This document shows, in pieces, positions 918 to 27,225 of a DNA stretch of 64,000 nucleotides; the stretch's first letter is position 1; every line of letters starts with the position of its first letter. The notes beneath the pieces were generated by a model. It did not search any database. It had not been told where the DNA came from and was given only the letters and a program-made list of their open reading frames with translations. The DNA is taken from NCBI RefSeq assembly GCF_023702225.1, contig NZ_JAMQCO010000012.1, positions 26,188 to 90,187 of the forward strand, written 5' to 3'. The translations under genes were made by a program, and so were the position numbers. This DNA comes from Aureimonas altamirensis. Lineage in GTDB: Bacteria > Pseudomonadota > Alphaproteobacteria > Rhizobiales > Rhizobiaceae.

Positions 918-1463
918 TCAGTGCGTCGGCGCGCGCCACTCGTAGCGGCCGTCGCCCTCGGAATCGGTCCAGAGCGGCAGCGCCCGACCGATCATGGAAT
1001 CTGCGGGGATGGGTCCGAAGTAACGGCCGTCCAGGCTGTCTCGAACGTCCCAATTCATGAGGAAGAGTTCGCGGTCGCCGATGACGCGGCAGCCCTGCCA
1101 GACAGGCAGATCGCGGCCGAGACTGTCGTGCTCCAGCGCCTCGCCCATCTCCACGCCATCGACCGCGATCGTGCGGCCGGTGCGGCAAACCCGCTGTCCG
1201 GGCAGGCCGAGGACGCGCTTCAGGAGCGGCACGTCGCGCCCGACATAGCCGCGCTCGGCCATGAAGGCCGCGAGCGGTTCGGGCGGCATGATCGCGACCA
1301 GTTCGGGTACCTTGATCCGGTCGGCAGGCGCGACGGTGTAGAAGCCCACCGGCGCGCTCGCCGTGGCGTTCCAGATGAGTTTCGTGGGCGTCGGGATGAA
1401 CGCGGCGATGGCGACGCCCATCGCCGCGAAATACGTCACCATGACGTAGCCGAACCGCGTCAT
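918..1463 (-). CDS. traF: TraF-type S26 signal peptidase
   Basis: The 181-residue protein has one N-terminal membrane segment (about residues 5-25), then ASAPVGFY containing the catalytic Ser and LLKRVLGLPGQ containing the catalytic Lys of the S26 serine/lysine family, and a C-terminal MNWDVRDSLDGRYFGP box. TraF peptidases process conjugative pilin, in RP4 making the cyclic pilus subunit, and act at the inner membrane. The start overlaps the stop of the DUF2840 gene by 4 bases, which indicates translational coupling. Confidence 0.9.
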   Translation of the reverse strand: MTRFGYVMVTYFAAMGVAIAAFIPTPTKLIWNATASAPVGFYTVAPADRIKVPELVAIMPPEPLAAFMAERGYVGRDVPLLKRVLGLPGQRVCRTGRTIAVDGVEMGEALEHDSLGRDLPVWQGCRVIGDRELFLMNWDVRDSLDGRYFGPIPADSMIGRALPLWTDSEGDGRYEWRAPTH

Positions 1464-1978
1464 GGCTCGATCCTCCGGCGATGCAGCCAGGCCGCATGAC
1501 GCTCGGGCGTGTAGGCGTGCGGCTCCAATCCGGCGGTCAGCCGGTTATGGACATGCCGCCAATAGTCCGGCGCGGCGTCGGCCGGGTCGAGGCCGAGCGC
1601 TTCCACGGCGTCGATGACGGCGAGCGCCCGCTGCACCTTCGGCCAGCCGTCGAGGCGCAACAGGATTTCGCCGCCGGGGCGCACGAAGGGCAGCGTCTGG
1701 AACGGCTCGTCGCGACGAACCGCGCGCACGATGTCGATGCGCGAGATGATCGTGCCGTGCTCGCCTTTCGCCCAGCGGACGAAGGCGAAGACGCTCTCCG
1801 GCGCGAAGCCGACGATGGAGCGGCGGCGGTCGAGGATCTGTTCATAGCTCTTGCGGCCGAACCTGATCCAGTGCTCGATCTTCTGCTTCTGGAACGTCAG
1901 TTCGACCAGCGTGGTGAAGGCGGGCGGCTCGTTGGTCAGCGGACGGCCGTGCATCCAGCGCTGAGGGTGCCCGGTCAT
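1460..1978 (-). CDS. DUF2840 domain protein
   Basis: This 172-residue protein matches DUF2840 (TTLVELTFQKQKIEHWIRFG, then SVFAFVRWAKGEHGTIISRI). The family occurs in the same slot, between repA-like and traF genes, in many alphaproteobacterial ICEs and plasmids, and has no known activity. It overlaps both neighbours by 4 bases (1975-1978 and 1460-1463), so it is co-translated with them. No catalytic motif or membrane segment is evident. Confidence 0.85.
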   Translation of the reverse strand: MTGHPQRWMHGRPLTNEPPAFTTLVELTFQKQKIEHWIRFGRKSYEQILDRRRSIVGFAPESVFAFVRWAKGEHGTIISRIDIVRAVRRDEPFQTLPFVRPGGEILLRLDGWPKVQRALAVIDAVEALGLDPADAAPDYWRHVHNRLTAGLEPHAYTPERHAAWLHRRRIEP

Positions 1979-3003
1979 GGCGCACCTCGCCGGGTGGCAC
2001 CGGCACCACGGATCGCGTGCGCGCGCGTCAAAGAAGAAGAGTTAGATTCTTTGTTAGGTTCTTCTATAGAGTCCGGCGCGCGATTTGCGCCTAATGTCCC
2101 GATACTGTGCGCGCCTAATGTCCCGATGGGATTCACATGGTTATCCACAGGCACTGTGGATAGATTTTCGGGGAGGAAGCGCAGTAGTTCGCGCCCATCT
2201 TCCCATTCGGTTTGGAGCAGGTATCCGGGCAGCGACTGGCGGGCCACGATCCGCCGCAGGTCGAGCGCGAAGTCGGAAGGCCGGGCGAGGCTGCCGGATT
2301 TCTGATGGAGATGAGAAATCTCGAACGCCCAGCCGCCCGGCTGGTGGCCGGCGTGCTTGCGGGCGACGCGATAGAGCCAGCGCTCTATGCCGCCGGTCAG
2401 CCGGAAATAGGCCGGGTCGATGGTCAGCACCAGCGAGCGGTCTATGACGCTGTGATAGACCCATTCGGGCAGGACGAATTCCATGCCCTCGACACGCCCG
2501 GCGCGCGTGGTCATCTCTTCCCATTCGTTGATCCATGAGAACTGCCGCCGTCGCCAATGCTTGCCGTTGCGGATCGTGGTGGCGATGACGGTCGATTGCA
2601 GGCGCGCAAGCGCAGCCTTGAGCAACAGGTAATCCCGGTTGCCGGTGGATCGGCCGACAGCGCGCAGGAGTTGATAGGGCATAAAGCGGAAGAAGCGCGA
2701 CGTGGCGAAGCCGCTGTTCTCGGCCGCGACGATCTGGCTCGCGGCCCAAATCAGCACGTCCGCGTCCCATATGGTCGCCATGCCGTGCTCGGGCATGGCC
2801 AAGACGTGCACCTCTACGTCGGCGGTCCTGTAGAGGATGGGTTTCAGGCGCGGCCGCTTGCCCAGCGAGAAGAACGGCCGCTCCATCAGATCGCGCTGGT
2901 CGCGCGGCGGCGCATCGCCCGTCGCGACCACGAAGGGGTCGAGGTGGCTGCGTTCGCTGACCGCTTCGGACTGCGCGCGGATATGATCGTCGTCGCGCAG
3001 CAT
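1975..3003 (-). CDS. Replication initiator protein A-like (RepA)
   Basis: A 342-residue protein of the replication initiator A family: LDPFVVATGDAPPRDQRDLM, then MERPFFSLGKRPR, and winged-helix type segments such as RFFRFMPYQLLRAVGR. On ICEs of this type the gene stays next to traF whether or not the element replicates autonomously. The ATG at 3003 follows the stop of the upstream excisionase gene directly; an in-frame ATG at 3024 would overlap that gene by 20 bases. The C-terminal tail carries a duplicated IGTLGA peptide. The start is uncertain, the family assignment is firm. Confidence 0.85.
   Translation of the reverse strand: MLRDDDHIRAQSEAVSERSHLDPFVVATGDAPPRDQRDLMERPFFSLGKRPRLKPILYRTADVEVHVLAMPEHGMATIWDADVLIWAASQIVAAENSGFATSRFFRFMPYQLLRAVGRSTGNRDYLLLKAALARLQSTVIATTIRNGKHWRRRQFSWINEWEEMTTRAGRVEGMEFVLPEWVYHSVIDRSLVLTIDPAYFRLTGGIERWLYRVARKHAGHQPGGWAFEISHLHQKSGSLARPSDFALDLRRIVARQSLPGYLLQTEWEDGRELLRFLPENLSTVPVDNHVNPIGTLGAHSIGTLGANRAPDSIEEPNKESNSSSLTRAHAIRGAGATRRGAP
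2087..2127. repeat. Short tandem repeat inside the RepA-like gene
   Basis: GCGCCTAATGTCCCGAT occurs at 2087-2103 and again at 2111-2127, a 24-base period. It encodes two copies of an IGTLGA peptide near the C-terminus of the RepA-like protein. Confidence 0.8.
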
Positions 3004-3004
3004 C

Positions 3005-3274
3005 TTACAGCTCGTCCCGCTCATCGAGCGTCAGCGGACGCGCGGGAAAGACCGTGCCGGCGTTCTTGTCGCTCGTGGATTTACGGGCTCCGACAGCGGA
3101 CCACGATTCCAGATCGCGGACGGCGTAGAGGACGCGGCCGCCGATCTTGCGATAGATGGGGCCGGTCCCGTAGGTCCGATGTTTCTCAAGGGTGCGCAGG
3201 GAAATGCCGAGAAAGCGCGCGGCCTCCTTGGTGCGCAATAGGCGTGGTGGCAGGTCCGCGTTGCGTCTCGCCAT
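3005..3274 (-). CDS. AlpA/RdfS-like helix-turn-helix protein, probable excisionase
   Basis: An 89-residue protein with a MerR/AlpA-type helix-turn-helix: LLRTKEAARFLGISLRTLEKH, then a wing containing YRKIGGRVLYAVRDLESW. AlpA-like proteins act as recombination directionality factors (in ICEMlSymR7A, RdfS) and as activators. Its place at the head of the repA-traF-transglycosylase operon fits RdfS, which heads the transfer operon of the Mesorhizobium island and is switched on by FseA. An FseA-like gene lies 760 bases away. The excisionase role is inferred from fold and context. Confidence 0.75.
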   Translation of the reverse strand: MARRNADLPPRLLRTKEAARFLGISLRTLEKHRTYGTGPIYRKIGGRVLYAVRDLESWSAVGARKSTSDKNAGTVFPARPLTLDERDEL

Positions 3275-3518
3275 GGGGATTACCTCCGGTTCGTCAGACA
3301 GGCTGCTGTCGGGAGCGACAGCGGGCTGTGGCGAACGATGGCGAGCGACCGGCGGCCTGTAGCGTGCCGTATTTGCGCCTATGCGCTGGCGGCACCCCCC
3401 GGAAGGGCAAAAAACGAAGGGATTTCAGCGACTCATTGCTTGCCGCGCCGAATAGGCAACGACATTGCCGCGTGCTTCGGCTAAGAATGCAGGCAGAGCA
3501 GACGCGCTGCTTCGGGGC

Positions 3519-3653: not shown

Positions 3654-3733
3654 CCCCCCGATCACCAGGTCAGAGGGGCCATTTGCGGGGGCGCACCGCA
3701 AGCCAGGCCCTTCCGGGAAGAAGGGGAATGACG

Positions 3734-4021
3734 ATGCGAAAGCCCATCGATCTCGATCCCGACGTGGACGATCTCGCGCCCACGGGAAACGCCATCACGC
3801 CCTATGATGAACAGCACCATGTGACCTATCTGCGCCTTCTGGACGCCAAGGCGGATGGCGCGGACTGGAAGGAAGTCGCGCACATCGTTCTGCACCGTGA
3901 TCCGGTTGGCGATGAAGCCCGGACGCGGCGGTGTTGGGAAAGTCACCTCGCGCGTGCTGAATGGTTTTCCCGCGCGGGCTACAAGCTGATTCTGGAAGAG
4001 GCGGCAGCGAACGAACGATGA
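3734..4021 (+). CDS. QseM-like DUF2285 protein, probable antiactivator
   Basis: A 95-residue protein that is essentially one DUF2285 domain: PYDEQHHVTYLRLLDAKADG, then DWKEVAHIVL and RCWESHLARAEWFSRAGYKL. The layout matches the C-terminal domain of the FseA-like protein that is convergent 12 bases away. DUF2285 is a helix-turn-helix variant used both in the excision activator FseA and in the small antiactivator QseM, which binds TraR and FseA. Size and single-domain form point to QseM, but activity is inferred. The ATG at 3734 has AAGGGG at a workable distance; the ATG at 3728 is too close to it. Confidence 0.7.
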   Translation: MRKPIDLDPDVDDLAPTGNAITPYDEQHHVTYLRLLDAKADGADWKEVAHIVLHRDPVGDEARTRRCWESHLARAEWFSRAGYKLILEEAAANER

Positions 4022-4033
4022 GCGAGAAGCCGG

Positions 4034-4817
4034 TCAAGACTTGCCGCGTTTGATCGGATAATGCAGCAGCAGGCGATAGCCGCCGTGCATCATCTGAAGG
4101 CCGTGGGCGACGAGGCGGCGAGCCTTGTTCTTGCGCGGATCGCTCTCGAAGTCCTCTTTGGTGCCGCGAAAGCCTAGCAGCACTTCGGCTATTGTCCGGT
4201 AGCTTTCGCCGCGCAGTTTGGCGTCGAGCGCGCGCAGGGACAGGATGTGCCATTGCCGGAGCTGGCCGGGCAGCTTCCCGAAGGGCGGTCCCGGCGAGCG
4301 CCCTTCGACCGACCGCAAGAAGCGGCGGGCGGCGTGCGAGCGCAAGTCTATGAACGCATCGAGGGGCACTCTGGCGACATAGAGGGTTGTCGTGTCCGGT
4401 GTGGCGTTCGGCAGCCAGAATTGATGCGCGACGCCATTGGCCTGCCAGATGCCGTGCCAGCCATCGGCGGCATGGCGCAGGTCGAGACCGTCAAGGCGGG
4501 CGAGCGAGATGACGGGTTCGGTCTCGTCGGTCTCGTTCTCTACGGGTGACAGGATGACGGCCTGCGGCTGGAGCCGTGGCGACCAGAACAGAGGCTGGCT
4601 GTCAGAAGGCGCATCGGGATCGTGCGGGAAATCGCAAACCCCAGCGCTGTACGAATGAGTCCAGCTGCTCGGCATCCGGTCGTGCGATCCGGGTGATCGA
4701 CTGGAAGTCATCACGGTATCCGCCGTGGCGACGGAGGTATTCCCAGGCAAGGCCGGCCGCCACGATCTTGTTGGCGTGTCTGTATGCTGCCGGCGCGCGC
4801 CAGTCGATGCTGAGCAT
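4034..4817 (-). CDS. FseA-like excision activator, two frames joined by predicted +1 frameshift
   Basis: Frame 0 (ATG 4817, stop 4602) encodes 71 residues with the N-terminal domain typical of these regulators (AGLAWEYLRRHGGYRDDF, then FVQRWGLRF). From the same point the +1 frame stays open to 4034 and encodes a DUF2285 domain (LRQWHILSLRALDAKLRGES, then LVAHGLQMMHGGYRLLLHYP). Joined at TTT (4631-4629) by a slip to TTC the product is about 260 residues and reads RWGLRF-PHDPDAP, matching single-frame relatives. ICEMlSymR7A msi172/msi171 make FseA in exactly this way, by +1 slippage of tRNA-Phe from UUU to UUC. The ATG has a GAGAGGTGA ribosome site. It is likely the activator of the rdfS-like operon. 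Confidence 0.8.
4626..4634 (-). promoter_or_regulatory. Predicted +1 programmed frameshift site CGA-TTT-CCC
   Basis: On the minus strand frame 0 reads CGA TTT CCC GCA and meets TGA eight codons later at 4604-4602. A one-base forward slip at TTT re-pairs tRNA-Phe on TTC, after which CCG CAC GAT continues the open DUF2285 frame. The site falls inside the conserved WGLRFP motif, as described for msi172. Confidence 0.75.
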
Positions 4818-5119: not shown

Positions 5120-5965
5120 TCATTTCGCCTTGAGGCGCTGCATTCCCTCGGCCAACGTCCAGAGGGCGCGATTGAGGGTCACGTTCTGGTCGATGCCGTT
5201 GATAGGGCGGGTCTGGCTGCGCCGGATGCGGCCTTCGGCGTTGCGCCGCTGTCCGTGCAGACCGCCGCGTATCATGTTCTCCTGAATGGTGTTGTAGGTC
5301 ATCCAGAGGCTTTGCCCGGCATCCTCGCGGCGGCGCGGCTGAATGATCTGGTCTGGACGGACGGGGCTTTCTTCCTCGCCATAGCGGGCGATAAGGCTTG
5401 CCTCTGCCAGCAAGCGGCGCTCATCTTCACCAAGCTGGATTTCCTTCATGGTCTCGCTGGCGTCGATCAGCCGGGGGAAGTCCTCGGCGACGGTATAGAC
5501 GCCTTCGATAATGTCATGCTGGATATTGCCCTTGTGGGGAACGCGAACGTCCTCGAACCGCTCTCCCGCCACAAGGCTGTTGGTGCAGACGAAACGCAGC
5601 ATCCCGGCGAACATCTGGTAGCTGCTGGTTCCGTCATGCGAATTGACGATGATAACTTCCGCCGCCTCCTGCTTGCCGATGCCGTCATCCCGGCGCAGGC
5701 GCAGCATGTGCTTGGCGTGGCCGTGGCGGCTGCCGTCACGCGGAACCGACTGGACGGCGAAGAACGGGAACCATCCTTCCCGGCGCAGCCCTTCCACGAT
5801 GTCGATGGTGGGAACGTAGACGTAACGCTCGGACCGGCTGTCGTGGGCCTCTCCGGCAAAGATCGACGGGACGTGCCGGTAAAGCGCCTCGTTGTCGAGG
5901 GCCTCGCGCCCGCTGATCTGGTGAGCATTGCGGCCGAACCGGGTGGCAAGGTGATGATAGGTCAT
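5120..5965 (-). CDS. DUF932 family protein, ICE/plasmid accessory
   Basis: A 281-residue protein with the DUF932 pattern: LDNEALYRHVPSIFAGEAHD, then YVYVPTIDIVEGLRREGWFP, HMLRLRR and VIIVNSHDGTSSYQMFAGML. DUF932 proteins occur on phages, plasmids and ICEs; several are phage-like or single-strand annealing related, but no function is firmly established. The ATG at 5965 gives the usual N-terminus MTYHHLATRFG. No signal peptide or membrane segment. It stands alone, ending in a strong hairpin, with 411 bases upstream before bioB. Confidence 0.8.
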   Translation of the reverse strand: MTYHHLATRFGRNAHQISGREALDNEALYRHVPSIFAGEAHDSRSERYVYVPTIDIVEGLRREGWFPFFAVQSVPRDGSRHGHAKHMLRLRRDDGIGKQEAAEVIIVNSHDGTSSYQMFAGMLRFVCTNSLVAGERFEDVRVPHKGNIQHDIIEGVYTVAEDFPRLIDASETMKEIQLGEDERRLLAEASLIARYGEEESPVRPDQIIQPRRREDAGQSLWMTYNTIQENMIRGGLHGQRRNAEGRIRRSQTRPINGIDQNVTLNRALWTLAEGMQRLKAK

Positions 5966-6376: not shown

Positions 6377-7363
6377 TCAAGCGGCAGACGCGGACATGCT
6401 GGCGCGCTCCGGCTCCCCGATCGCAGCAAACAGTTCGGCATCCTGGCCGATCCCGGCATTCGGCGTGGTGAGCAGCGTGTCACCGTAGAAGACCGAGTTC
6501 GCGCCCGCCACGAGACAAAGGATCTGCGCCTCGCGGTTGAGGGAGGAGCGTCCGGCGGAAAGCCGCACGGTCGAGGCCGGCATGACGAGGCGGGTGGTCG
6601 CCACCATCCGCACCAGTTCCAGCGTATCGACGCGCGGCCGGTTGGCCAGTGGCGTGCCTTCGACAGGGACGAGTGCGTTGATCGGCACGCTTTCGGGATG
6701 GGGGTCCATTCCCGCCAGAACGTGCAGCATGGAGGCTCTGTCGCGTATCGATTCACCCATGCCGATGATGCCGCCGCAGCACAGGTCTATGCCGAAGGAG
6801 CGCACTGTGGCGAGCGTGTCCAGCCGGTCCTCATAGGTGCGGGTGGTGATGATCCGGCCGTAGAACTCGGGGCTGGTATCGAGGTTGTGGTTGTAGGCCG
6901 TGAGGCCGGCGGCTGCGAGCCGTTCGGCCTGATGCGGTTTCAGCATACCGAGCGTGACGCAGGCTTCCATGTCGAGGGCGCGGACGCCCTCGACCATCGC
7001 GATCACGGCATCGAACTCCCGGCCGTCGCGAACCTGCCGCCACGCCGCGCCCATGCAGAAACGTTCGGCTCCCGCCGCCTTGGCGGTCGCCGCCATTGCG
7101 ATCACCTTTGCCGAGTCCATCAGCCGGTCACGGGTCAGATCGACCTCACGGTGATGGGCAGACTGCGGGCAGTAGGCGCAGTTCTCAGGGCATCCGCCTG
7201 TCTTGATCGACAGAAGGCTTGCCTTCTGGACCTTGTTCGGGTCGTGGCGCTGGCGATGGACGGCGTTGGCACGACCGACCAGCTCAAGCAACGGAAGCTC
7301 ATGGAGGGCGACGATCTGGTCGATTGTCCAGTCGTGCCGGATTTCCCCATCGGCCGCACTCAT
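6377..7363 (-). CDS. bioB: Biotin synthase
   Basis: Radical-SAM enzyme that inserts sulfur into dethiobiotin, the last step of biotin synthesis. The 328-residue protein shows the [11 protein letters not shown] motif, whose three cysteines bind the SAM [4Fe-4S] cluster, and later family motifs [12 protein letters not shown] and [11 protein letters not shown]. Its ATG overlaps the bioY stop (7360-7363), so the order is bioY-bioB, controlled by the BioR box upstream of bioY. No other biotin synthesis gene (bioF, D, A) is nearby. Carriage inside accessory DNA suggests transferred scavenging and finishing functions. Confidence 0.96.
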
Positions 7364-7935
7364 TCGGCTTTGCCCCGAAAGCGGGCAAAGGACGCCGGCA
7401 GCGCCATGCTGCCAGCGGCCACGACACCGATCTTGACCAGATCGCCCAGGAGGAAGGGCAGGACGCCGACAGCGAGAAGCTGACCCACTGGAACATAGAC
7501 GGCAAGCCACGCCATGCCGATGGCATAGATCGGCACCATTCCGGCAAGCATTGCGCCGACACGTCCGAGCGTGCCCTTGCCGACCGCCAGCGCTCCGACC
7601 AGCCATGACGCGACAAGGTAGCCCAAGAGATAGCCGCCGGTCGGGCCGACCATGTAGGCAAGGCCGACGCCGCGTTCAGGGGAACCGGAGAACACCGGAA
7701 GGCCGACAGCGCCGGCCGCCAGATAGGCAATGAAGATCGAGACGGCGATGCGCGGCCCGAACGCCACGGCGAAGGCCATGACGGCCATCGTGTGCAGGGT
7801 CATCGGCACCGGCCAGAAGGGAATCTGCACCTTGGCCGCCAAGGTCATCAGCGCCGTGCCTGCAATGATGGTCAACGCTGTTCGCGCCGGCAGCGCAAAT
7901 CGGGTTTCGATAGGTCTCGTGGCGGCATTGCTCAT
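7360..7935 (-). CDS. bioY: Biotin transporter BioY
   Basis: A 191-residue integral membrane protein of the BioY (ECF S-component) family, with about six hydrophobic segments and the family motif region [15 protein letters not shown] following YMVGPT. BioY takes up biotin, alone or with an ECF energising module; no bioM or bioN is visible here. First gene of a bioY-bioB operon, with a BioR box 24-33 bases upstream of its ATG. Confidence 0.93.
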
Positions 7936-9887: not shown

Positions 9888-9916
9888 TTGACACTGTGTA
9901 TACAACGGCCCATATT
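9888..9916 (+). promoter_or_regulatory. Promoter and operator of the toxin-antitoxin pair
   Basis: TTGACA (9888-9893) and CATATT (9911-9916) are 17 bases apart, 7 bases before the antitoxin ATG. The spacer contains the palindrome TGTATACA within TGTGTATACAACG, the expected place for autorepression by the antitoxin. Confidence 0.6.
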
Positions 9917-9922
9917 CCGGCC

Positions 9923-10258
9923 ATGGCAAAAACTCGTGTAGCTCCTTCCGAACCCGCCCGTTCCGCTGTTGTCGCGGCGCGTGTCTCTGCGTCCGACGCC
10001 AAGGGCAGCATCAACCTGCGGATCGAGACCGGCACCCGCCAACTCATCGACGACGCAGCGGCGGTCCTTGGCAAGACACGCACCGAGTTCATGGTGGAAA
10101 GCGCCCGGCGACAGGCGGTTGACGTGCTGCTCGACCAGCGCCTGTTCACGCTCGATCCCGAGCGCTATGACGCCTTCATGCACGCGCTCGACAATCCGCC
10201 CGCGCCGGGACCGAAGCTTAAGGCCCTGCTGCGCCGGACCCCGGCATGGCAGAAATAG
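9923..10258 (+). CDS. DUF1778 antitoxin (TacA-like)
   Basis: A 111-residue protein with a basic N-terminal tail and a ribbon-helix-helix DUF1778 domain (SINLRIETGTRQLIDDAAAV, then LGKTRTEFMVESARRQA), followed by a C-terminal toxin-binding tail. Such antitoxins neutralise GNAT toxins that acetylate aminoacyl-tRNA and repress their own promoter. The next gene encodes a matching GNAT and overlaps it by 13 bases. The ATG at 9923 is preferred over an in-frame one at 9896, because the latter lies inside the promoter spacer. Confidence 0.88.
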   Translation: MAKTRVAPSEPARSAVVAARVSASDAKGSINLRIETGTRQLIDDAAAVLGKTRTEFMVESARRQAVDVLLDQRLFTLDPERYDAFMHALDNPPAPGPKLKALLRRTPAWQK

Positions 10259-10776
10259 ACGATACGCCGGACCAGCCCGAATTGCGACTGTCGGCCCCCG
10301 TTCCCCTGACCGCCGATCATGATCTTTCCGCGTTCGACTGCGGCGAGCCGGTGCTGAACGACTGGCTGCGCCATCGAGCCTTGAAGAACGAAAGCCGGTT
10401 CTCGCGCACCTATGTCGTCTGCACGGGAAATCGGGTTGTCGGCTATTTCTGCATTGCGGCCGGGTCGGTCGAACGCGGTGCGGCTCCCGGCAAGGTGCGG
10501 CGCAATGCGCCCGACACGATCCCGGTTTCGGTCATAGGGCGGCTGGCGGTCAGCCGTGACCATGCCGGCAAAGGCCTCGGCGCGGACCTGCTGTCGGACG
10601 CGCTGCGCCGGATCGCGCTGGCGTCGCAAAGTATCGGTATCGGGGCGGTTCTGGTGCAGGCCAAGGACGATGCGGCGAAGCGCTTCTATCTGCGCTGTGC
10701 TGAGTTCATCGAATATCCCGAGGACAGCCGGACGCTGTTTCTGCCCATCGAAACCGTGATTGCGGGTTTTGGCTGA
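10246..10776 (+). CDS. GNAT-family toxin (TacT-like)
   Basis: A 176-residue acetyltransferase: LTADHDLSAFDCGEPVLNDW at the N-terminus is typical of TacT/AtaT toxins, followed by VIGRLAVSRDHAGKGLGADL with the acetyl-CoA-binding R-x-x-G-x-G/A type loop and AKRFYLRCAEF. Known members acetylate the amino group of charged tRNA and stop translation. It overlaps the DUF1778 antitoxin gene by 13 bases, which indicates coupled translation. In an ICE this pair would act as a stabilisation or defence module. Confidence 0.87.
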   Translation: MAEIDDTPDQPELRLSAPVPLTADHDLSAFDCGEPVLNDWLRHRALKNESRFSRTYVVCTGNRVVGYFCIAAGSVERGAAPGKVRRNAPDTIPVSVIGRLAVSRDHAGKGLGADLLSDALRRIALASQSIGIGAVLVQAKDDAAKRFYLRCAEFIEYPEDSRTLFLPIETVIAGFG

Positions 10777-12424: not shown

Positions 12425-13003
12425 GCATGGCATCGGCGTCGTATCCCTTGTCGGCCAGCAGTGCGGCAGGCTCGATCTCGGGGAGCGCGATCAGCGTGTC
12501 GTACGCCTTGCAGTCGGCGGCCTGCCCACCGGTCACGTGGAAGGCGAGCGGTCGCCCGCCGGCATCGGCGATACAGTGAACCTTACAGCCGAACCCGCCC
12601 CGCGAGCGGCCAAGAGCTTGTCGATGAGTCCCCCTTTTACCCCCGCTGCCGATACGTGGGCGCGGATGGTGGTGCTGTCGATGCTGTAGTGGCCGGTGTC
12701 CGCCATCATCTCGGCCAGGGTGACCGACACGATCTCCCACGTGCCGGCCTCACTCCACCGCCGGAACCGCCGGTAGATCGTGTTCCACTTGCCGTACTTC
12801 TCCGGCACGTCGCGCCAAGGAGCACCGCAACGCAGCCGCCACAGGATGCCGTTCAGAACCGCTCGATTCTCGGTTGGACGCCGCCCTCGACCACGCATCG
12901 ATGGCTCGATCGGCAGCAGATCCTTCAAGACCCGCCACTCCACCTCGCTCAGATCGCCCCGGCTCAATCACGCCTCCAAAAGGAAGCGTTGAATCAACCG
13001 CTC
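12417..13003 (-). mobile_element. Truncated IS5-family insertion sequence
   Basis: OrfA (TTG 12967 to 12533) begins MSRGDLSEVEWRVLKDLLPI and contains WNTIYRRFRRWSEAG and the first catalytic Asp in SIDSTTIRAH. OrfB (to 12417) continues with GGKRGTHRQALGRSRGGFGC and the second Asp in LLADKGYDAD. GTAAAAGGGGG at 12640-12630 is the likely -1 frameshift site joining them. The product stops at DAMLG, so the last third with the catalytic Glu is missing and the copy is inactive. The 5' end, including a probable terminal repeat near 12985-13003 (GGAAGCGTTGAATCAACCG on the plus strand), remains. The right boundary is estimated. Confidence 0.8.
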
Positions 13004-13130: not shown

Positions 13131-13937
13131 TCACTCGAATGATCGCAGCGCGGACACGATGCTGTCGCGCATTTCGTCGATCGCCTGCGACACCTCCGTT
13201 CGCCGACAATGCAACTCGTCGCCGGCGCGTCCAAGATACGCATCTCGCGCGAGGGTGAGGATTTCCGCGGCCCGATCGGACAACTTCGCCGCTGCCCACT
13301 CCGCAGCGCTATCCTTGGACACAAACTGACCTGTCGTGGCCGTACTCCACATGCGCGCCAGCGTCAGCAGGACGTTACGCTCGTCCCCGTCGACGGCCCG
13401 GATCAGTTCTGGCAGGAGATCGCCGATCGCACTGCGTATGACGGCGGAAGGTATGCCCGAAACCAAATCGCTAATGTCCGGACCGACCAGGGGCACCGCT
13501 TCTTCTCTCGCCTGAGCGAGAAGCAGAGTGAACTCCGGGCTCGCCTCCGCTTCCGGAATTGCGCCACTTTCGAGAGCGGTCCGCAACCATTCGCCGTAGA
13601 CGAACTCCGCTCGCGCCGGATACGGCAGGCATTCGAGATCGGCTCGTCGAAAGATGATGACCTCGAGCGGCCGACGACCCAGACTGTCGAAGGGATAGTG
13701 CCCTGAAACGGTGAGGAGATCGGACGAGAGGTCCGCACGTATGGATGCGGGCAGTGCGTCGTCCACGACAGCGATAAGATCGACGTCGCTCCTCTTGCGC
13801 AGCCCCGCGGCCACGGCAGAGCCGTGCAGATAGACCGCCGAAAGAGATTTTCCAAGTCGATGCTTCAGAAGCGGCAATGCGCTTGAAGCTTCGGCAGGGA
13901 CATTCGGTCCGTGGGTCGGCAGTTCCGAGACTTTCAT
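13131..13937 (-). CDS. AadA-like aminoglycoside nucleotidyltransferase
   Basis: A 268-residue protein with the nucleotidyltransferase core HGSAVAAGLRKRSDVDLIAV (G-S plus D-x-D for Mg-ATP), then LEVIIFRRADL and the C-terminal all-helical domain (NVLLTLARMWSTATTGQFVS, then KDSAAEWA) characteristic of ANT(3'')(9)/AadA enzymes, which adenylylate streptomycin and spectinomycin. Length matches the family (about 260). It is not in an integron cassette: no attC site is seen. It lies next to an IS remnant, so it may have been acquired. Resistance cannot be read from sequence alone. Confidence 0.8.
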   Translation of the reverse strand: MKVSELPTHGPNVPAEASSALPLLKHRLGKSLSAVYLHGSAVAAGLRKRSDVDLIAVVDDALPASIRADLSSDLLTVSGHYPFDSLGRRPLEVIIFRRADLECLPYPARAEFVYGEWLRTALESGAIPEAEASPEFTLLLAQAREEAVPLVGPDISDLVSGIPSAVIRSAIGDLLPELIRAVDGDERNVLLTLARMWSTATTGQFVSKDSAAEWAAAKLSDRAAEILTLARDAYLGRAGDELHCRRTEVSQAIDEMRDSIVSALRSFE

Positions 13938-16458: not shown

Positions 16459-18342
16459 TCATATCTCGATTTCCGGCACGCCTGCATCAGTCAGAAGCTG
16501 ATAGAGCTCAGCCACATTGTTTCGCTCTCCGCGTTGTTGGCAGAAGGCGAAGATGGCGCGTTGTTTCGCCCGCGAGAGGGCGACGAAAAACGCTGCGACG
16601 CCTTCGGGGTCGCCGGGGGTGTGGGCCCACCAAGCCCGGTCGTCGAGGCCAACGAAGATGATGGTGTCGTATTCGAGCCCCTTGCTCTTATGGACGGTCA
16701 TCATCGGAATCTGATTGACCCCCTCGAACGCATCTAGGCAGGCCGTCCAGTTCGGGGCGCCATCGGCCGAAGCGAAGAAGTGGATGCAAAAAGCTTCAAG
16801 AATGATCTGAAGCAGGTCGCCAACGCCATATTCGGCATAGGTTCGGGCGATCGCCCCGAGATCCAGATATTCGAAAACCCGTCTGACGAAATCGACAGCG
16901 CTTTGCCGCGACGGGGCAGTGGCCGCCATGTCGGTGCGCAAAGCAGTGAGAAATGCGCTGAGTTCCGCCTCGACCTTGGCCGCGCGCGCATCATCGTCTT
17001 GCCCGGTAGCGCGCAGCGTCAGGACAGAAGACGAGACCAGCTGCCATGCGGCCGGCGCGCGGCGTGTCGCGCCCAGGCGGAAGATCGCGATCGCGAGCCG
17101 GCTTAAGTCATCGGAAAGCAAATCCTGAAGCGAGGTTTTGCCAAGGGCATGGCTCTCGTTACGGATCCGCAGACCGTGAGCGGCGAAGGCTCCAGCGAGT
17201 TCGTGCTCATAATCGTCGGACTTCTGTTTCACGAGGAGCGCGTAGTCGCGCGGCGCTCGGGCGCGGGTGGCCATGTCGTTGGCGATCCATTGCGCCAGGT
17301 GGGTGGCTTCCGCCGCCTTGGTCTGGCTGGACCAGACCTGAGCCACGTCGCCATCGACTTGGCGCGCTGTCTGAGCGACCGTTGGGACGGTGTTCGGATC
17401 CAGAGCGCGCGCGACGACGTGCTGGATAGCGACCAAGTCGGGCGAGGAACGGAAGTTAAAGAGGAGGGGGAAGCGGGCTCCCCCGAAATCGGCCTGCAGT
17501 CGCTGAAAGGCGTCCTGGCGCGCGCCAGCGAAGACCATGATCCGCTGCTTGTCGTCACCGACGCCGGTGATGACGGTCTGTCCGCCAAAGAAGGCCGACA
17601 GCAGGAAGTCGTATTGCGCGTAGGTTGTGTCCTGGAATTCATCGACGAAAACGAAGGGATAGGTGGCGACAAGCGCCCGACGGATGTGGGGATTGGCCCG
17701 GAGCAGCAGCTCCGCGAGCCGGTTGATGCCGACGAAGGTAAGTGAAGAGGGCTGGCCTGGCCGTAGTTGCGTTGCCCACCAGCGGGCGATGGCGAACTCG
17801 GCGGCGTTCTGGGGCGCGATAGGTCCCATGGGCAGGCGATAGCTGCCGACGATCTTGGGTTCAAAGTCGCTCGCGCTGTAGCCGGCGATTTCCGCCTGCC
17901 ATTCTGGCGGCGCACTGAGCCGGGCGAGCGTGAGGAAGCCTTCTATCGCCTTGCGCTTTGGGAAGGAGATTTCGTAGGGCCGGGTCGGGCGCCAGTCGGC
18001 GGGGATGGCGTTGAGAAAGCGATCGACCAGGCTCTTGGTGAAGGCGTCGAAGGTGACCGACACGAACCGGTTGGCGAACTCTGGCGGGCACCGCTGGCGG
18101 ACGCGCGACGCGAGATTGTTGGCTGCATCTGTTTTGAACGAAATCGCCAGCACGCGGTGCGGCGCTCGGCAGAGGCCCGTCTCAAGCAAATAGTCGGCGC
18201 GTTGGGCGAGAAACTCGGTCTTGCCGGCGCCGGGGCCTGCGACCACACACGCCGAGCCGGCGTGGCGCAGGGCATTCCACGCCGCCGGTTCGAGATCGTT
18301 AATGCCGCTCGGGCGCCAGTCCTCTGGCCGAATAAGGCGCAT
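16459..18342 (-). CDS. gajB: Gabija protein GajB, UvrD/Rep-like helicase
   Basis: A 627-residue superfamily 1A helicase: Walker A AGPGAGKT (residues 35-42), DEXX box FVFVDEFQDTTYAQYDF, motif IV-type FNFRSSPDLV, and motif V/VI MMTVHKSKGLEYDTIIFVGL and FFVALSRAKQRAIF. It begins 2 bases after the gajA stop. In Gabija, GajB senses DNA ends or nucleotide depletion and works with the GajA nuclease to cut phage DNA. It is somewhat longer than the Bacillus protein (about 500), as are many proteobacterial versions. The ATG at 18342 is preferred because longer frames would run into gajA. Confidence 0.88.
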   Translation of the reverse strand: MRLIRPEDWRPSGINDLEPAAWNALRHAGSACVVAGPGAGKTEFLAQRADYLLETGLCRAPHRVLAISFKTDAANNLASRVRQRCPPEFANRFVSVTFDAFTKSLVDRFLNAIPADWRPTRPYEISFPKRKAIEGFLTLARLSAPPEWQAEIAGYSASDFEPKIVGSYRLPMGPIAPQNAAEFAIARWWATQLRPGQPSSLTFVGINRLAELLLRANPHIRRALVATYPFVFVDEFQDTTYAQYDFLLSAFFGGQTVITGVGDDKQRIMVFAGARQDAFQRLQADFGGARFPLLFNFRSSPDLVAIQHVVARALDPNTVPTVAQTARQVDGDVAQVWSSQTKAAEATHLAQWIANDMATRARAPRDYALLVKQKSDDYEHELAGAFAAHGLRIRNESHALGKTSLQDLLSDDLSRLAIAIFRLGATRRAPAAWQLVSSSVLTLRATGQDDDARAAKVEAELSAFLTALRTDMAATAPSRQSAVDFVRRVFEYLDLGAIARTYAEYGVGDLLQIILEAFCIHFFASADGAPNWTACLDAFEGVNQIPMMTVHKSKGLEYDTIIFVGLDDRAWWAHTPGDPEGVAAFFVALSRAKQRAIFAFCQQRGERNNVAELYQLLTDAGVPEIEI

Positions 18343-18344
18343 GG

Positions 18345-20312
18345 TCAGGCACCCGCGGGAGGCGGCGGGGTGAGACGAGCGACAATTGAGGTCAGGAGTG
18401 CGCGCAGTTCTTCGGGAGCGGCGGCTGCGAGGGCAGCCGGGTCTTGTGCACTCAACACCCGAACGTGGGTGCTGGGCTTGCCGCGCCCCAGGAATAGATA
18501 CCGATACCAGCGCATCAAACCGTCCTGGTCGGCAGCGTACAGGTGAGGCAGACCATCGTCGCCGAGAACCGCCGTGCGCGGCTCCCCTGCAGGCGAGGGC
18601 CCCTGACGGCCGGGTTCGACGATCTGATAGGCGAGCGGGAGAGCCTTCAGCATCGAGTAGTCGAGGTCGAGGGGCGTGCAGAAGAAGACATTGAACTGGC
18701 GCAGCCAATTCATCCAGTTTGTGATATTCGCAGTGTCCTCGATCGGCAGAGCATCGAAAGCCGCCAGATTGGCGGCTGGTCCTTGGGGGTTAAGATGCTG
18801 TCCGAAGATGGCCTGTGGCGTGACGTTGTTTGCAAGCAGTTGCGTGCAGGCCGTTTTGATACGTCCCCACCCACCCCCAGAACGGCCCCAGTCGAGATCC
18901 AGCAAGGTGGCGTAGGGGATGTCGAGATCGGTCAGCAGTCGCCAGAGGTGGTTCACATGCCGACCGCCCAGCGGAACGACCGCGACAAAGGATCGATCGA
19001 TGTCGAGCCCCATCGCCTCGGCGAGACGGGGAAGAACGACCTCCTCGGACGCACCTTCTCCCAGCACGACGAAGCGCGCGAAATAGAGTTCCGGATAGGT
19101 CCGCACGGCCTCGCGAATGAATTTCGATGCCTCTTCCTCGCCGACTTGGAGGTTGATCGGGCGGATGCGGGCCGTTCGATCGTGCGGATCGAGCCGGAAG
19201 TGCCGGACCTGCGTCGGATCCACCCGGGCGAGGATGCTTGGGGAATGGCTGGAGACAACGGCCTGCGCCTGCGGCGACTTCGTCAGGTCCTGTATCTGCC
19301 GGACGATGCGGGAGAGATAGAAGGGAGCGAGATTGTTCTCGGGCTCTTCGATCGCGATGAGCGTGAGCGCCGGTAACGGTACGCCGCCAGCCTGGAAACC
19401 GGCCCCAGCAGGATCGGCGACGATCCCGGCTTCAACGTCCAGTGTCGCCGCGGTCATCGCCAAATGGAAGAGCGACCTCTGGCCGTCGCTCAGGTCATCG
19501 AGGGCTCGCTCCCGGCCGACCTCGTCGGGGCGGAAGACCACCTCTACCTTCCGGATGAAATGCTCAAAACGCAGATCGAGCGGGCGGAAGACCGGCGTCG
19601 TGTCGGTCCCGGCTGTGTAAACTTCCTGCCACCGCCGCGTCACCGCTGCGGCAATAACATCGACGGCCGGCTCCCCGGCGAAAGCGCCGTTCAAGGCGGC
19701 GCCGGCGTTTGTGAACGTGTCGCGGACTCCCTGCGACCAGTTGATGGCGCGCCACAGCCTGCCGCGCAGAAAGGCCGTCACCTGGGAGGCACCGTCCCGC
19801 GTCGCCGGCACGTAGATCAATTGGATCCGCGCCCGGTCGGCGGCCTTCAACTCGGTGCAATCAGCGTCGGTGAACGCCCCGAAAGTCCGGACCGCCCAGT
19901 ATTTCTGTTCAATCGCACCATCGAGCGAACCGTCATCGGTCCAGGTCGCTTCGAGACGCAGGCGGCATTTCAGCTTGCCCGCCTCTTCAGCGGCCATCTG
20001 ATGGAAGAATTCCGGAATTGCCGCGCCAGCGGCGCCGTCGGCGTCTAGTTCTGGAAAGGCAATGATTGCCTCTAGGACGAAGTTTCGCTGGAGTGGCGCA
20101 ACAAGCTCGGTGGAAGGGACGTGAAAATCCTGACGCCGCAGTCGTCGCTGATCGCCCGTCACGCCGAAGAGGCGCTGCAGGGCCTGCATCAGGGCGGTCT
20201 TGCCCGCGCCGTTGACGCCGACAAAGGTGGTGAGGCCGGAGGTTAGATCGACGCTTGCCGCAACTGGTCCGAAGCAACGAAAATTCGTCAGACTGAGCCG
20301 CTCAATAAACAT
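18345..20312 (-). CDS. gajA: Gabija protein GajA, OLD-family ATPase with TOPRIM nuclease
   Basis: A 655-residue protein: ABC-type ATPase with Walker A GVNGAGKT (32-39), signature LSDGQRSLFHLA, Walker B LTLIAIEEPENNLAP and H-loop VVSSHSPSILARV, then a C-terminal TOPRIM domain (FVVLGEGASEEVVLPRLAEA with catalytic Glu, and ATLLDLDWGRSGGGW with the D-x-D). OLD-family proteins with a downstream UvrD-like helicase form the Gabija anti-phage system, where GajA nicks phage DNA once NTPs fall. The stop lies 2 bases before gajB. A separate 167-base gap upstream suggests its own promoter. Confidence 0.9.
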   Translation of the reverse strand: MFIERLSLTNFRCFGPVAASVDLTSGLTTFVGVNGAGKTALMQALQRLFGVTGDQRRLRRQDFHVPSTELVAPLQRNFVLEAIIAFPELDADGAAGAAIPEFFHQMAAEEAGKLKCRLRLEATWTDDGSLDGAIEQKYWAVRTFGAFTDADCTELKAADRARIQLIYVPATRDGASQVTAFLRGRLWRAINWSQGVRDTFTNAGAALNGAFAGEPAVDVIAAAVTRRWQEVYTAGTDTTPVFRPLDLRFEHFIRKVEVVFRPDEVGRERALDDLSDGQRSLFHLAMTAATLDVEAGIVADPAGAGFQAGGVPLPALTLIAIEEPENNLAPFYLSRIVRQIQDLTKSPQAQAVVSSHSPSILARVDPTQVRHFRLDPHDRTARIRPINLQVGEEEASKFIREAVRTYPELYFARFVVLGEGASEEVVLPRLAEAMGLDIDRSFVAVVPLGGRHVNHLWRLLTDLDIPYATLLDLDWGRSGGGWGRIKTACTQLLANNVTPQAIFGQHLNPQGPAANLAAFDALPIEDTANITNWMNWLRQFNVFFCTPLDLDYSMLKALPLAYQIVEPGRQGPSPAGEPRTAVLGDDGLPHLYAADQDGLMRWYRYLFLGRGKPSTHVRVLSAQDPAALAAAAPEELRALLTSIVARLTPPPPAGA

Positions 20313-20479: not shown

Positions 20480-21151
20480 TTAGGATTCGGCGGTCAGCCC
20501 GAGCAATGCGTGGTGGATCGCGATGGCTGGTCGCTCAACCGTTCTGGCATGTTCGGATCGCCAGAATGCCGGATGTTCGACGACTGGAGAAAGCACGATC
20601 TGTTCGTCGGCCCGCTTCACGCGCCCCAAATACGCGTTTACGCCCGCCGCTGCCGACTGCGCATCGCCGCCGAGCAGATACCCCGCCATGAAGCCGGAGG
20701 CATGGTTTTCGGCGTATTTGCCCGAACGGAACCGATCGACGCCTTCGACCACATACTCGCGGCAGAGGTAGGTGTCGCTTCCATCCAAGCGCTTGCACTC
20801 GATGATCGCGTGAGGATCGTGCTCAGCGTGGCGCAGGAAAACTTCTACGACATACAAGGGAATGTCTGTTCGACCGTCGGGTGTCACAACATCGGGGGTA
20901 GAGCGCGACTCCATGCCGAGCGCCACGATGAAGGACTTGCCCCACGCCAGCGTTCCGGACGTCAGAGCCTGGCGCATGCCGTCTCGCAGCCGCTCGGTCA
21001 TGACGACCTCGCCCTCTAAGGCCGTCTCCCCATCTATGGCCGCCAAGGCCCAGCCCTCCCGCACCGTCACCAGGATCGCGGCGACCACCTCATCGGCTAG
21101 GGCGATATATTCGCGCCCGACCGCGCCTTGGGACTCGTGGGGGATCCTCAA
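20480..21151 (-). CDS. PD-(D/E)XK-like nuclease, third gene of the R-M-like operon
   Basis: A 223-residue protein with a candidate PD-(D/E)XK core: Asp96 in GRTDIPLYVVEVF and Glu118/Lys120 in HAIIECKRLDG, spaced as in restriction endonucleases, followed by helical RFRSGKYAENHASGFMAGYL. Its ATG overlaps the methylase stop by 4 bases, so it is translated together with the methylase. I read it as the restriction subunit or an added nuclease; no precise family name is recognised. The link between methylase and nuclease is strong, the catalytic assignment moderate. Confidence 0.65.
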   Translation of the reverse strand: MRIPHESQGAVGREYIALADEVVAAILVTVREGWALAAIDGETALEGEVVMTERLRDGMRQALTSGTLAWGKSFIVALGMESRSTPDVVTPDGRTDIPLYVVEVFLRHAEHDPHAIIECKRLDGSDTYLCREYVVEGVDRFRSGKYAENHASGFMAGYLLGGDAQSAAAGVNAYLGRVKRADEQIVLSPVVEHPAFWRSEHARTVERPAIAIHHALLGLTAES

Positions 21152-25336: not shown

Positions 25337-26086
25337 TTACAATAGCTTAGATGCTCGGTTAATAATCGAGTGGGAATAGGGGGTACAGGCAGGCGGCTCA
25401 CCACTGGCTACTAACGGCGTGCGCTCCCAGCCATTGGTCGTCTTCACCTCGATCAGCCGATCGCTGCCATCGATGTCGAAGCTCAGGATGTCATAGCCGG
25501 CGCCGTCGCCATCGATATCCGACACCCAGCGGATGCGTTCGGCAAGATCGGTCCGACCGGCGGCAATAAGGCTGGCACGCTCATGAGCGAGGACGCGCTC
25601 TTCGCCGGCGCGACCCAACGCGCGATTGCGCGCATCGCGCTCGGCCACATCGTACTTCCGAGCGATGGTGGTCATCTGCTCGAGCTCGTCGGGCGGCGGT
25701 GCATTCCGGAGCGTCGGTGGCAGGCCGATCCATAGCATCGCCTCTTCACGAAGCGCCGAAAGCGATGGCCCCACCGGCACTGGCACGGCCGATGCGAGCC
25801 AATCCGGATGACGCTGGAGCCAACGCACTACCGCATCGACGAGCGAGGCCTGGAAATTGAACGCCGGCTTGTAGCCTCGGATCCAGTCCTCACCGAGACC
25901 CTGGAGAACGGCGCTGATGTTCTGATGCTTATATTCGATCGAGCCGCGGGGCCGATCGATCACACCTTGCAGCAAACGGTTATGCTCGGCTTTGCTGTAG
26001 GGTCGCCCGGCGATGTCGTCGCCAAGCATCGCGAAATAATCCGCGACGATCGCATCATTCTGCTGATCCGACCAGTCACCTGCCAT
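25337..26086 (-). pseudogene. DUF3883 protein, 3'-truncated
   Basis: From the ATG at 26086 the protein begins MAGDWSDQQNDAIVADYFAM, has the family's N-terminal ENRPYSKAEHN-like segment (GRPYSKAEHNRLLQGV) and enters the DUF3883 domain (LGRAGEERVLAHERASLI, then DRLIEVKTTNGWERTP). In relatives FF-x-S-x-N-E and about 60 more residues follow. Here homology ends near 25415 and 25 unrelated residues run to a stop. DUF3883 is a nuclease-like domain often found in defence loci. The loss lies beside the att core, so it was probably caused by integration or excision of the island. Confidence 0.75.
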
Positions 26087-26286
26087 GTCGGCTCGCGAGC
26101 CGGGGGTCGAGCTGGACGCGGCCCGTATCATGTCAGCAATCGTACTGGCGCACCGAGCGCCGGTCCGGCTTCGGCGAGCAAGCTTCTGCAGCGCGTCGCG
26201 GCCTCCGGGCATCTCGATCAGTCGGGCGCCCGGACGGCAACTGACGCCCGGGGCGATACCGCATCGTCCTGCAGGCCGGCTGCTTA

Positions 26287-27225
26287 TCATCGCTCCGGCA
26301 GCAGGATATGTTCGAGGCGGTCATCCGGCGGAAGGTCGAAGCGCCCGATGCCCCAGTTCTCCGCACGCCAATCGGCCTTTGCCTCTTCGATACGCTCCCG
26401 CGAAGACGCCACGAAATTCCACCAGATATAACGCGGTCCCGGCAACGTCGCCCCACCGAGGATCATCAGCCTGGCACCGCGATCGCCCGCCGCAACCGTG
26501 ATCCTGTCGCCGGGACGGAAGATCATCATCTGCGGCGCCCGATATTCCTGCCCGGCAATCGAGATCGATCCTTCGACGATGTATATGCCCCGATCTTCGT
26601 GGTCGTCGGGCAGTGGAAGCCGATGCCCCGCGTCCAGTTGCACATCTGCGTAGAAGGCTTCCGAGAGCATGCTCGCGGGCGCATGCTCGCCATAGGCCGA
26701 GCCCAGGATCAAGCGAACGGAAACCCCCTCGTCACCAATGACGGGCAGGGCATCGCGGCCATGATGCTCGAAGGCCGGCTGCATTTCCTCGTGGCTTTCC
26801 GGCAGGGCCAGCCAGGTCTGGATGCCGAACAGGCTGCTCGGACCGCTTCGCGCGGCCGTCGTCGTGCGTTCCGAATGGGTGACGCCGCGTCCGGCGATCA
26901 TCCAGTTCAGTTCTCCGGGGCGGATGATCTGGTTTGCGCCGGTGCTGTCACGGTGATGAAACTCACCCCGGAACAGATATGTAACGGTTCCCAGCCCGCT
27001 GTGCGGGTGCGGGCGGACGTCGACACCTTGCCCGGTCAAAAGCTCGGCCGGTCCGGCCTGATCGAAGAAGATGAACGGTCCGACCATCTGTCGTTTCGGC
27101 GCAGGCAATGCGCGCCTCACTTCGAAGCCACCGAGGTCCCGCGAGCGCGGTACGATCAGGGTCTCGATCGCGTCGGCGTCGATCGCGTCGGGGCAGCCCG
27201 GTTCGAATGAAGGGTTCCAACTCAT
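26287..27225 (-). CDS. Pirin family protein
   Basis: A 312-residue bicupin. The N-terminal cupin carries the metal ligands in DVRPHPHSGLGTVTYLF and EFHHRD, followed by GELNWMIAGRGVTHSE, all standard for pirins; the second cupin (IYIVEGSISIAGQEYRAPQM) lacks them. The C-terminus RYIWWNFVASSRERIEEAK is typical as well. Bacterial pirins bind Fe or Ni, and some are quercetinases or regulators. Transcribed toward the DUF3883 remnant, with its own promoter in the 407-base gap upstream. Confidence 0.92.
   Translation of the reverse strand: MSWNPSFEPGCPDAIDADAIETLIVPRSRDLGGFEVRRALPAPKRQMVGPFIFFDQAGPAELLTGQGVDVRPHPHSGLGTVTYLFRGEFHHRDSTGANQIIRPGELNWMIAGRGVTHSERTTTAARSGPSSLFGIQTWLALPESHEEMQPAFEHHGRDALPVIGDEGVSVRLILGSAYGEHAPASMLSEAFYADVQLDAGHRLPLPDDHEDRGIYIVEGSISIAGQEYRAPQMMIFRPGDRITVAAGDRGARLMILGGATLPGPRYIWWNFVASSRERIEEAKADWRAENWGIGRFDLPPDDRLEHILLPER

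What the first reader, a model, noticed from the sequence alone, without database searches (positions are those of the whole stretch)
4034..4817. FseA-type excision activator expressed through a +1 programmed frameshift
Two minus-strand frames encode the two domains of a DUF2285 regulator and meet at CGA-TTT-CCC (4634-4626). A +1 slip from TTT to TTC gives one product of about 260 residues whose junction restores the WGLRFP-DPD motif. This is the site type shown for msi172/msi171 (FseA) of ICEMlSymR7A. It predicts that excision of this element depends on frameshift efficiency. The element carries different cargo, so the switch is not tied to symbiosis islands.
Basis: partly seen in the sequence, partly recalled or inferred. 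Interest (0 to 1): 0.8.

Follow-up and report, generated by a model that had tools for sequence, protein, structure and literature searches.

The report
FseA-type excision activator with frameshift
This is a bacterial regulator gene, split over two overlapping reading frames, that the ribosome most likely joins by skipping one base so that a mobile DNA element is switched on only rarely; it is a clear but ordinary member of a family already described from many bacteria.

Summary
On the minus strand, 4817-4602 encodes PF20109 (DUF6499) and the frame ending at 4034 encodes PF10074 (DUF2285). They meet at CGA-TTT-CCC (4634-4626); a +1 shift gives 260 residues. Third-codon-position substitutions change phase near that site. 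In 140 distinct +1 contexts from relatives the slip codon is TTT followed by a pyrimidine in 140 of 140, and synonymous codons around it (GGG, TTG, CGA) are far off background, so the bases themselves are selected. A QseM-like antiactivator (match to QseM, PDB 7uqt, E 2.6e-15), an rdfS-like gene, RepA, DUF2840, a TraF-type peptidase and a DUF3363 relaxase lie beside it, as expected of the FseA system. The genome holds three such genes, all split. The idea is not new: PMC10359603 reports the site in alpha-, beta- and gammaproteobacteria (4709 homologues, about 61% with the shift). That excision of this element depends on it is unproven; no tyrosine integrase was found on its 107.6-kb contig. 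One lead: shift-type genes often lie near a QseM-like gene, single-frame ones rarely, but shared ancestry cannot be excluded.

The parts
4602..4817 (-). 0-frame ORF, 71 aa, DUF6499/PF20109 domain (msi172-like half); also the unshifted product
   Evidence: PF20109 E 2.7e-22, residues 5-64; AWEYLRR motif in the translation
4034..4636 (-). +1-frame half with DUF2285/PF10074 (msi171-like half)
   Evidence: PF10074 E 2e-27; substitution phase
4626..4634 (-). slip site CGA-TTT-CCC; TTT (4631-4629) can re-pair as TTC in +1
   Evidence: TTT + pyrimidine in 140 of 140 distinct +1 contexts, 86 of 86 after reduction
4638..4643 (-). TGGGGT, a ribosome-binding-site-like G run coding Trp-Gly ahead of the slip codon
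   Evidence: Gly codon is GGG in 98 of 140 relatives against 11% background; the window itself has GGT
3683..4021 (+). QseM-like antiactivator gene (solo DUF2285), convergent with fseA; the true start may lie inside this frame
   Evidence: PF10074 E 6.2e-6, just over the cut-off; the segment 3731-4021 matches PDB 7uqt_A 'Quorum sensing master protein' E 2.6e-15; net charge of its DUF2285 part -1, fseA's +6
3005..3274 (-). rdfS-like HTH_17 gene, presumed target
   Evidence: PF12728 E 7.6e-9; an rdfS-like gene lies downstream on the same strand within 3.5 kb in 72 of 86 +1 loci with at least 1.2 kb upstream and 2.2 kb downstream
3364..3395 (-). inverted repeat GTGCCG-N20-CGGCAC, ending 89 nt before the rdfS-like ATG; candidate FseA box
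   Evidence: identity with the published FseA box not shown
1975..3024 (-). replication initiator RepA-like gene
   Evidence: PF10134 E 1.9e-80
1460..1978 (-). DUF2840 gene
   Evidence: PF11000 E 8.7e-72
918..1463 (-). TraF-type S26 signal peptidase
   Evidence: PF10502 E 9.2e-28
5120..5965 (-). DUF932 gene just upstream of fseA
   Evidence: PF06067 E 1.2e-45

Best explanation
An fseA-type gene. Ribosomes start at 4817, make the DUF6499 domain and usually end at 4602. A minority slip +1 when tRNA-Phe on UUU (4631-4629) re-pairs with UUC, probably helped by the G run just upstream and by the preceding CGA, and make the 260-residue activator with its DUF2285 DNA-binding domain. The activator then switches on the rdfS-like operon (rdfS, repA, DUF2840, traF and onwards) and so excision and transfer, while the convergent QseM-like protein binds the DUF6499 part and blocks it. 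Shown here: domains, frame relation, conserved site, selection on the site, neighbours, QseM match. Inferred from the published R7A work: that the shift happens, promoter activation, antiactivation, excision.
For: Both domains; substitution phase flips near the site; TTT-Y in 140 of 140 distinct contexts, with GGG in 98 of 140 Gly codons, CGA in 107 of 116 Arg codons and TTG in 89 of 133 Leu codons against within-gene backgrounds of 11%, 9% and 11%, and the same in a set reduced to 86; single-frame relatives lack it: TTT in 2 of 26, GGG in 6 of 26; QseM match to 7uqt; rdfS-like gene and relaxase in place; published experiments on R7A FseA and QseM.
Against: No direct evidence of a shifted product here. 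No PF00589 integrase or TrbE-type gene on the 107.6-kb contig. The window has GGT, not GGG, so its G run is shorter than usual. The inverted repeat near rdfS has a 20-nt spacer and lies further from the start than the published box. No LuxI-type gene was found in the genome, though no control genome rang either. 1 of 154 +1 relatives (L072) lacks the motif.
Confidence: 0.9

Rival explanations
1. The gene is broken: an indel or sequencing error has split an ordinary single-frame regulator.
For: Two overlapping frames are what a one-base indel would give; a few relatives do look decayed (L066 and L164 with the C domain in the third frame, L072 without the motif).
Against: 154 of 175 loci have the same +1 relation and 140 of 140 distinct contexts keep TTT-Y; substitution phase shows both frames under coding selection.
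Confidence: 0.03
2. Two separate proteins are made: the DUF6499 protein and a DUF2285 protein started inside the mRNA, without any frameshift.
For: The C frame is open from 4933; solo DUF2285 proteins exist as antiactivators (PMC10359603).
Against: Synonymous selection on GGG-TTG-CGA-TTT-Y is not needed for two proteins; relatives with one frame fuse the same two domains; DUF2285 domains of +1-type genes are basic (145 distinct, +2 to +13), most solo ones are not (122 distinct, -8 to +6, median -1; 8 at +2 or more).
Confidence: 0.05
3. The site works but the element is a relic without its own integrase, so the shift no longer controls excision here.
For: No PF00589 place on the contig; between window 12430 and 27489 nothing matches the fetched stretches of the same-genus genome G005, and the inserted DNA carries other genes there.
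Against: Relaxase, rdfS-like, RepA and TraF frames are open; change against L027 is biased to third positions; integrase-like places lie near the low ends of contigs C6, C7, C13 and C38, and the assembly is in 41 pieces.
Confidence: 0.35

Closest known systems
FseA (msi172/msi171) of ICEMlSymR7A, Mesorhizobium japonicum
   Same: DUF6499 + DUF2285, +1 frameshift between them, WGL motif with a G run beside the site, rdfS and traF nearby, QseM antiactivator
   Different: Different host (nearest named kin tried an Aurantimonadaceae bacterium, 81% in one chromosomal protein); qseM-like gene convergent beside fseA; no LuxI-type gene found; bioB/bioY and defence genes nearby. The R7A sequence itself was not compared.
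Single-frame FseA relatives, including RovC-like regulators
   Same: Same two domains
   Different: One frame, TTT at the site in only 2 of 26; lower N-domain scores in the two searches
prfB-type +1 frameshifting (recalled, from no call)
   Same: +1 shift with an upstream Shine-Dalgarno-like G run
   Different: No stop codon in the A site here; slip codon is Phe UUU, not Leu CUU

Membership tests
FseA family | N-terminal DUF6499 (PF20109) with an AWEFLRRN-like motif | tested here: met
   PF20109 E 2.7e-22; the motif reads AWEYLRRH; several plasmid genes matched by this half are annotated DUF6499
FseA family | C-terminal DUF2285 (PF10074), basic | tested here: met
   E 2e-27; net charge +6
FseA family | halves joined by a conserved +1 site next to WGL | tested here: met
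   frame relation and site conserved; the R7A site itself not compared
FseA family | a single fused polypeptide is made | not testable with these tools
   needs protein or reporter data
FseA family | activates rdfS through an inverted-repeat FseA box | tested here: inconclusive
   rdfS-like gene and an inverted repeat upstream, with spacing unlike the published box; activation not testable
QseM (for 3683-4021) | solo DUF2285 like QseM, without DUF6499 | tested here: met
   7uqt E 2.6e-15
ICE of the ICEMlSymR7A type | integrase and Trb conjugation genes on the element | tested here: not met
   none on the contig; the element's ends are not known, so it is not filed as an ICE
ICE of the ICEMlSymR7A type | TraR/TraI quorum control | tested here: inconclusive
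   no PF00765 in the genome, but no control rang; LuxR-type genes not searched

The most novel reading that the evidence does not exclude
The frameshift and the antiactivator are one device: the unshifted DUF6499 product, made in excess, carries the part that QseM binds (R7A two-hybrid data reported in PMC10359603) and soaks up QseM, so the slip rate sets a decoy-to-activator ratio and a threshold. This would explain why QseM-like genes were found near 47 of 68 shift-type genes but only 2 of 28 single-frame ones (loci with at least 2.5 kb on both sides).
Probability: 0.12. Interest if true: 0.6.

Novelty: new member of a known kind. Interest (0 to 1): 0.2.

Why it matters
It adds a well-supported case of a programmed frameshift in a mobile element outside symbiosis islands, and it shows how the gene should be annotated. 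The comparative counts sharpen two points: the slip codon is the tRNA-Phe codon UUU with UUY in the +1 frame, and the surrounding synonymous codons are strongly selected. The co-occurrence with QseM-like genes is a testable lead on why the shift is kept.

Tried and rejected
Stimulatory RNA structure: the 70 nt after the site fold no better than shuffles (z 0.60); 4660-4596, over the site, gives z -1.69 with 11 of 200 shuffles as good; not pursued. Two other folds in the same call (L027, L212) were not aimed at the site and were not used.

QseM and frameshift on the tree: 108 representatives of 181 distinct proteins, 7 changes of frame type; only 1 independent pair on supported branches (5 in all), sign test not informative, so ancestry cannot be excluded. 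Fisher p 1.3e-8 ignores ancestry. The survey covers the 80 named loci and 40 stretches chosen around mostly single-frame genes, not every locus held; with shorter flanks the counts were 13 of 14 shift-type and 0 of 7 single-frame. The profile was built largely from shift-type genes, and the single-frame stretches were mostly longer than the shift-type ones. In the counts (118 of 137 against 3 of 25) a QseM-positive was accepted at any flank, which favours the shift type; I rely.

FseA box: in 136 regions upstream of rdfS-like genes the best 7-base inverted repeat matches 7 of 7 in 70 (50 of 680 shuffles) and at least 6 of 7 in 129 (468 of 680 shuffles); 114 of those 129 end 80-99 nt before the assumed start. 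Distance and spacer differ from the published box, so no identity is claimed.

Host name: a 16S query was aimed at wrong coordinates and not used. One chromosomal protein gave 81% to an Aurantimonadaceae bacterium, 74% to a Bosea-titled bin and 58-66% to the other named genomes tried, an Ochrobactrum 61%.

PDB match for the DUF2285 half of fseA: none at E 0.01.

The 2015 PNAS paper and a 2015 review by the same group were not held and are known only through papers that cite them. I did not search for a decoy proposal as such; 'titrat' has 0 occurrences in PMC10359603, and the 3 paper searches were on other terms. It may have been proposed elsewhere.

Count corrected on recheck: Leu codons at the site are 133, not 134.

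Full report
What is there. On the minus strand the 0-frame from ATG 4817 to the stop at 4602 encodes 71 residues with a full PF20109 match (Pfam name Trans_reg_dom; several plasmid genes matched by this half are annotated DUF6499). The frame that ends at 4034 holds PF10074 (DUF2285; Pfam name RovC_DNA-bd). They meet at CGA TTT CCC, 4634-4626.

Is it real. Pairwise DNA alignment with the closest relative, L027 of a same-genus genome (87.3% over 769 nt), gives mismatches at 0-frame codon positions 1/2/3 of 5/8/21 up to the TTT and 46/12/6 after it, the pattern of two coding frames joined by a +1 step. Pooled over 27 relatives, the best point for the phase change is 9-12 nt after the start of TTT, slightly better than at TTT itself (logL -5378.0 against -5382.4), and a model without change is far worse (-6727.9). 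The pairs are not independent, so these figures are descriptive.

Relatives. The PF20109 family was sought in 297 genomes of the order (61 with a match) and 398 of the phylum (43 with a match), with 0 of 14 control genomes ringing; a scan of named genomes kept the best 80 of 377 loci. In the sequence held at that point, 209 N-domain hits, 34 of them dropped as duplicates, left 175 rows: 154 with the C domain in the +1 frame, 14 in the same frame, 2 in the third, 5 without a C domain found. Two of the five (L155, L181) have the same motif on loci that end soon after it. Of the 154, 153 have the TGG-GG codons; the exception, L072, has a degenerate site. The 153 are 140 distinct 60-nt contexts. 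At the slip position the codon is TTT in 140 of 140 and the next base is C (122) or T (18), so that the +1 codon is always UUY, a codon of the same tRNA-Phe. The search for the site asked only for TGG GG, so TTT was not imposed.

Selection on the bases. Around the site synonymous codons are far from the usage of the same genes: Gly GGG 98 of 140 (background 11%), Leu TTG 89 of 133 (11%), Arg CGA 107 of 116 (9%), Phe TTT 140 of 140 (28%) (two rare codons before the slip codon fell off the printed list and were read as not Arg). After reduction to 86 sequences under 80% identity the figures are GGG 65 of 86, TTG 45 of 79, CGA 56 of 63, TTT 86 of 86. Single-frame relatives do not show it: of 26 distinct ones with the W-G codons (35 rows), TTT in 2 and GGG in 6. 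The G run beside WGL is described in print as ribosome-binding-site-like. The window has GGT, so its run is one G shorter.

Which codon slips. Conservation of UUU-Y, also where the codon before it is not CGA (33 of 140), favours re-pairing of tRNA-Phe; CGA and the G run look like helpers (inference).

Surroundings. Downstream on the same strand lie an rdfS-like HTH_17 gene (3005-3274), RepA (1975-3024), DUF2840 (1460-1978) and a TraF-type peptidase (918-1463), then a lytic transglycosylase and a DUF3363 relaxase (L210); published work places rdfS, traF and msi107 in one FseA-driven operon. Between fseA and rdfS, on the other strand, lies a solo DUF2285 gene whose segment 3731-4021 matches the solved QseM (7uqt_A, E 2.6e-15). 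Its charge (-1) fits the antiactivator side: 145 distinct fseA domains range from +2 to +13, 122 solo domains from -8 to +6 with median -1. An inverted repeat lies at 3395-3364 ahead of the rdfS-like gene. None of the 16 PF00589 places and none of the 4 TrbE-type places found in the genome is on this 107.6-kb contig. The same-genus genome G005, whose fseA region is syntenic with C4 21.1-35.4 kb apart from gaps, has a PF00589 place about 37 kb from its fseA. Chromosomal synteny with the fetched stretches of G005 resumes at window 27490, so the right end of the inserted DNA probably lies near there; the left end was not found. The genome holds two more split fseA genes, on C12 and C40, each with a solo DUF2285 gene within about 3 kb.

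What it most likely does. By analogy with R7A: low-frequency shift, activator, rdfS operon, excision and transfer, with QseM as brake. The frames, site, selection and neighbours are shown; the working steps are inferred.

Known or new. PMC10359603 (passages and section 18 seen) states that FseA-like genes with the conserved +1 site occur throughout gamma-, beta- and alphaproteobacteria and counts 4709 homologues, about 61% with the shift. PMC5009743, PMC5882170 and PMC8627217 (passages) describe the system or its elements. In my own search 31 of 72,556 plasmid records carry a match to the N half. So this is a new member of a known kind.

A lead. A QseM-like gene was found near 47 of 68 shift-type and 2 of 28 single-frame genes with at least 2.5 kb on both sides (loci surveyed: the 80 named ones and 40 further stretches). 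On a tree of 108 representatives the frame type changes 7 times, but only one independent pair rests on supported branches, so shared ancestry can explain it. Together with the published binding of QseM to the DUF6499 half, it suggests that the unshifted product may act as a decoy. That is a guess worth one experiment.

Noticed in passing
window 16459-20312 (-): A GajA/GajB pair (Gabija anti-phage system): PADLOC E 7.5e-240 and 1.3e-220.
   Followed up: partly
window 21148-24111 (-): Large N6-methylase like type IIG restriction-modification enzymes (PADLOC E 4.6e-38), with a PDC-S36-like protein at 25337-26290.
   Followed up: no
window 13131-13937 (-): Aminoglycoside-adenylyltransferase-like gene (PF13427 E 9.2e-25) near an IS4/5-type transposase frame at 12533-12967.
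   Followed up: no
window 9896-10776 (+): TacA-type antitoxin gene followed by a GNAT acetyltransferase gene, probably a toxin-antitoxin pair.
   Followed up: no
window 6377-7935 (-): bioB-like and bioY genes next to each other beside the fseA region: biotin synthesis and uptake as possible cargo.
   Followed up: no
L066, L164, L072: fseA copies that depart from the rule: C domain in the third frame (L066, L164) or a degenerate slip motif (L072), perhaps decaying copies.
   Followed up: no
L077, L078, L127: The 0-frame stays open for 687-906 nt from the N-domain start, right across the DUF2285 region, so that two long frames overlap; may be chance in G+C-rich DNA.
   Followed up: no
loci and tree: QseM-like genes lie near 47 of 68 shift-type fseA genes but 2 of 28 single-frame ones (flanks of at least 2.5 kb); ancestry not excluded.
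   Followed up: partly
regions upstream of rdfS-like genes in L001-L208: Inverted repeat whose arms differ between loci but stay complementary (GTGCCGC/GCGGCAC, GTGCGAA/TTCGCAC, GGGCCGT/ACGGCCC), mostly ending 80-99 nt before the assumed start.
   Followed up: partly
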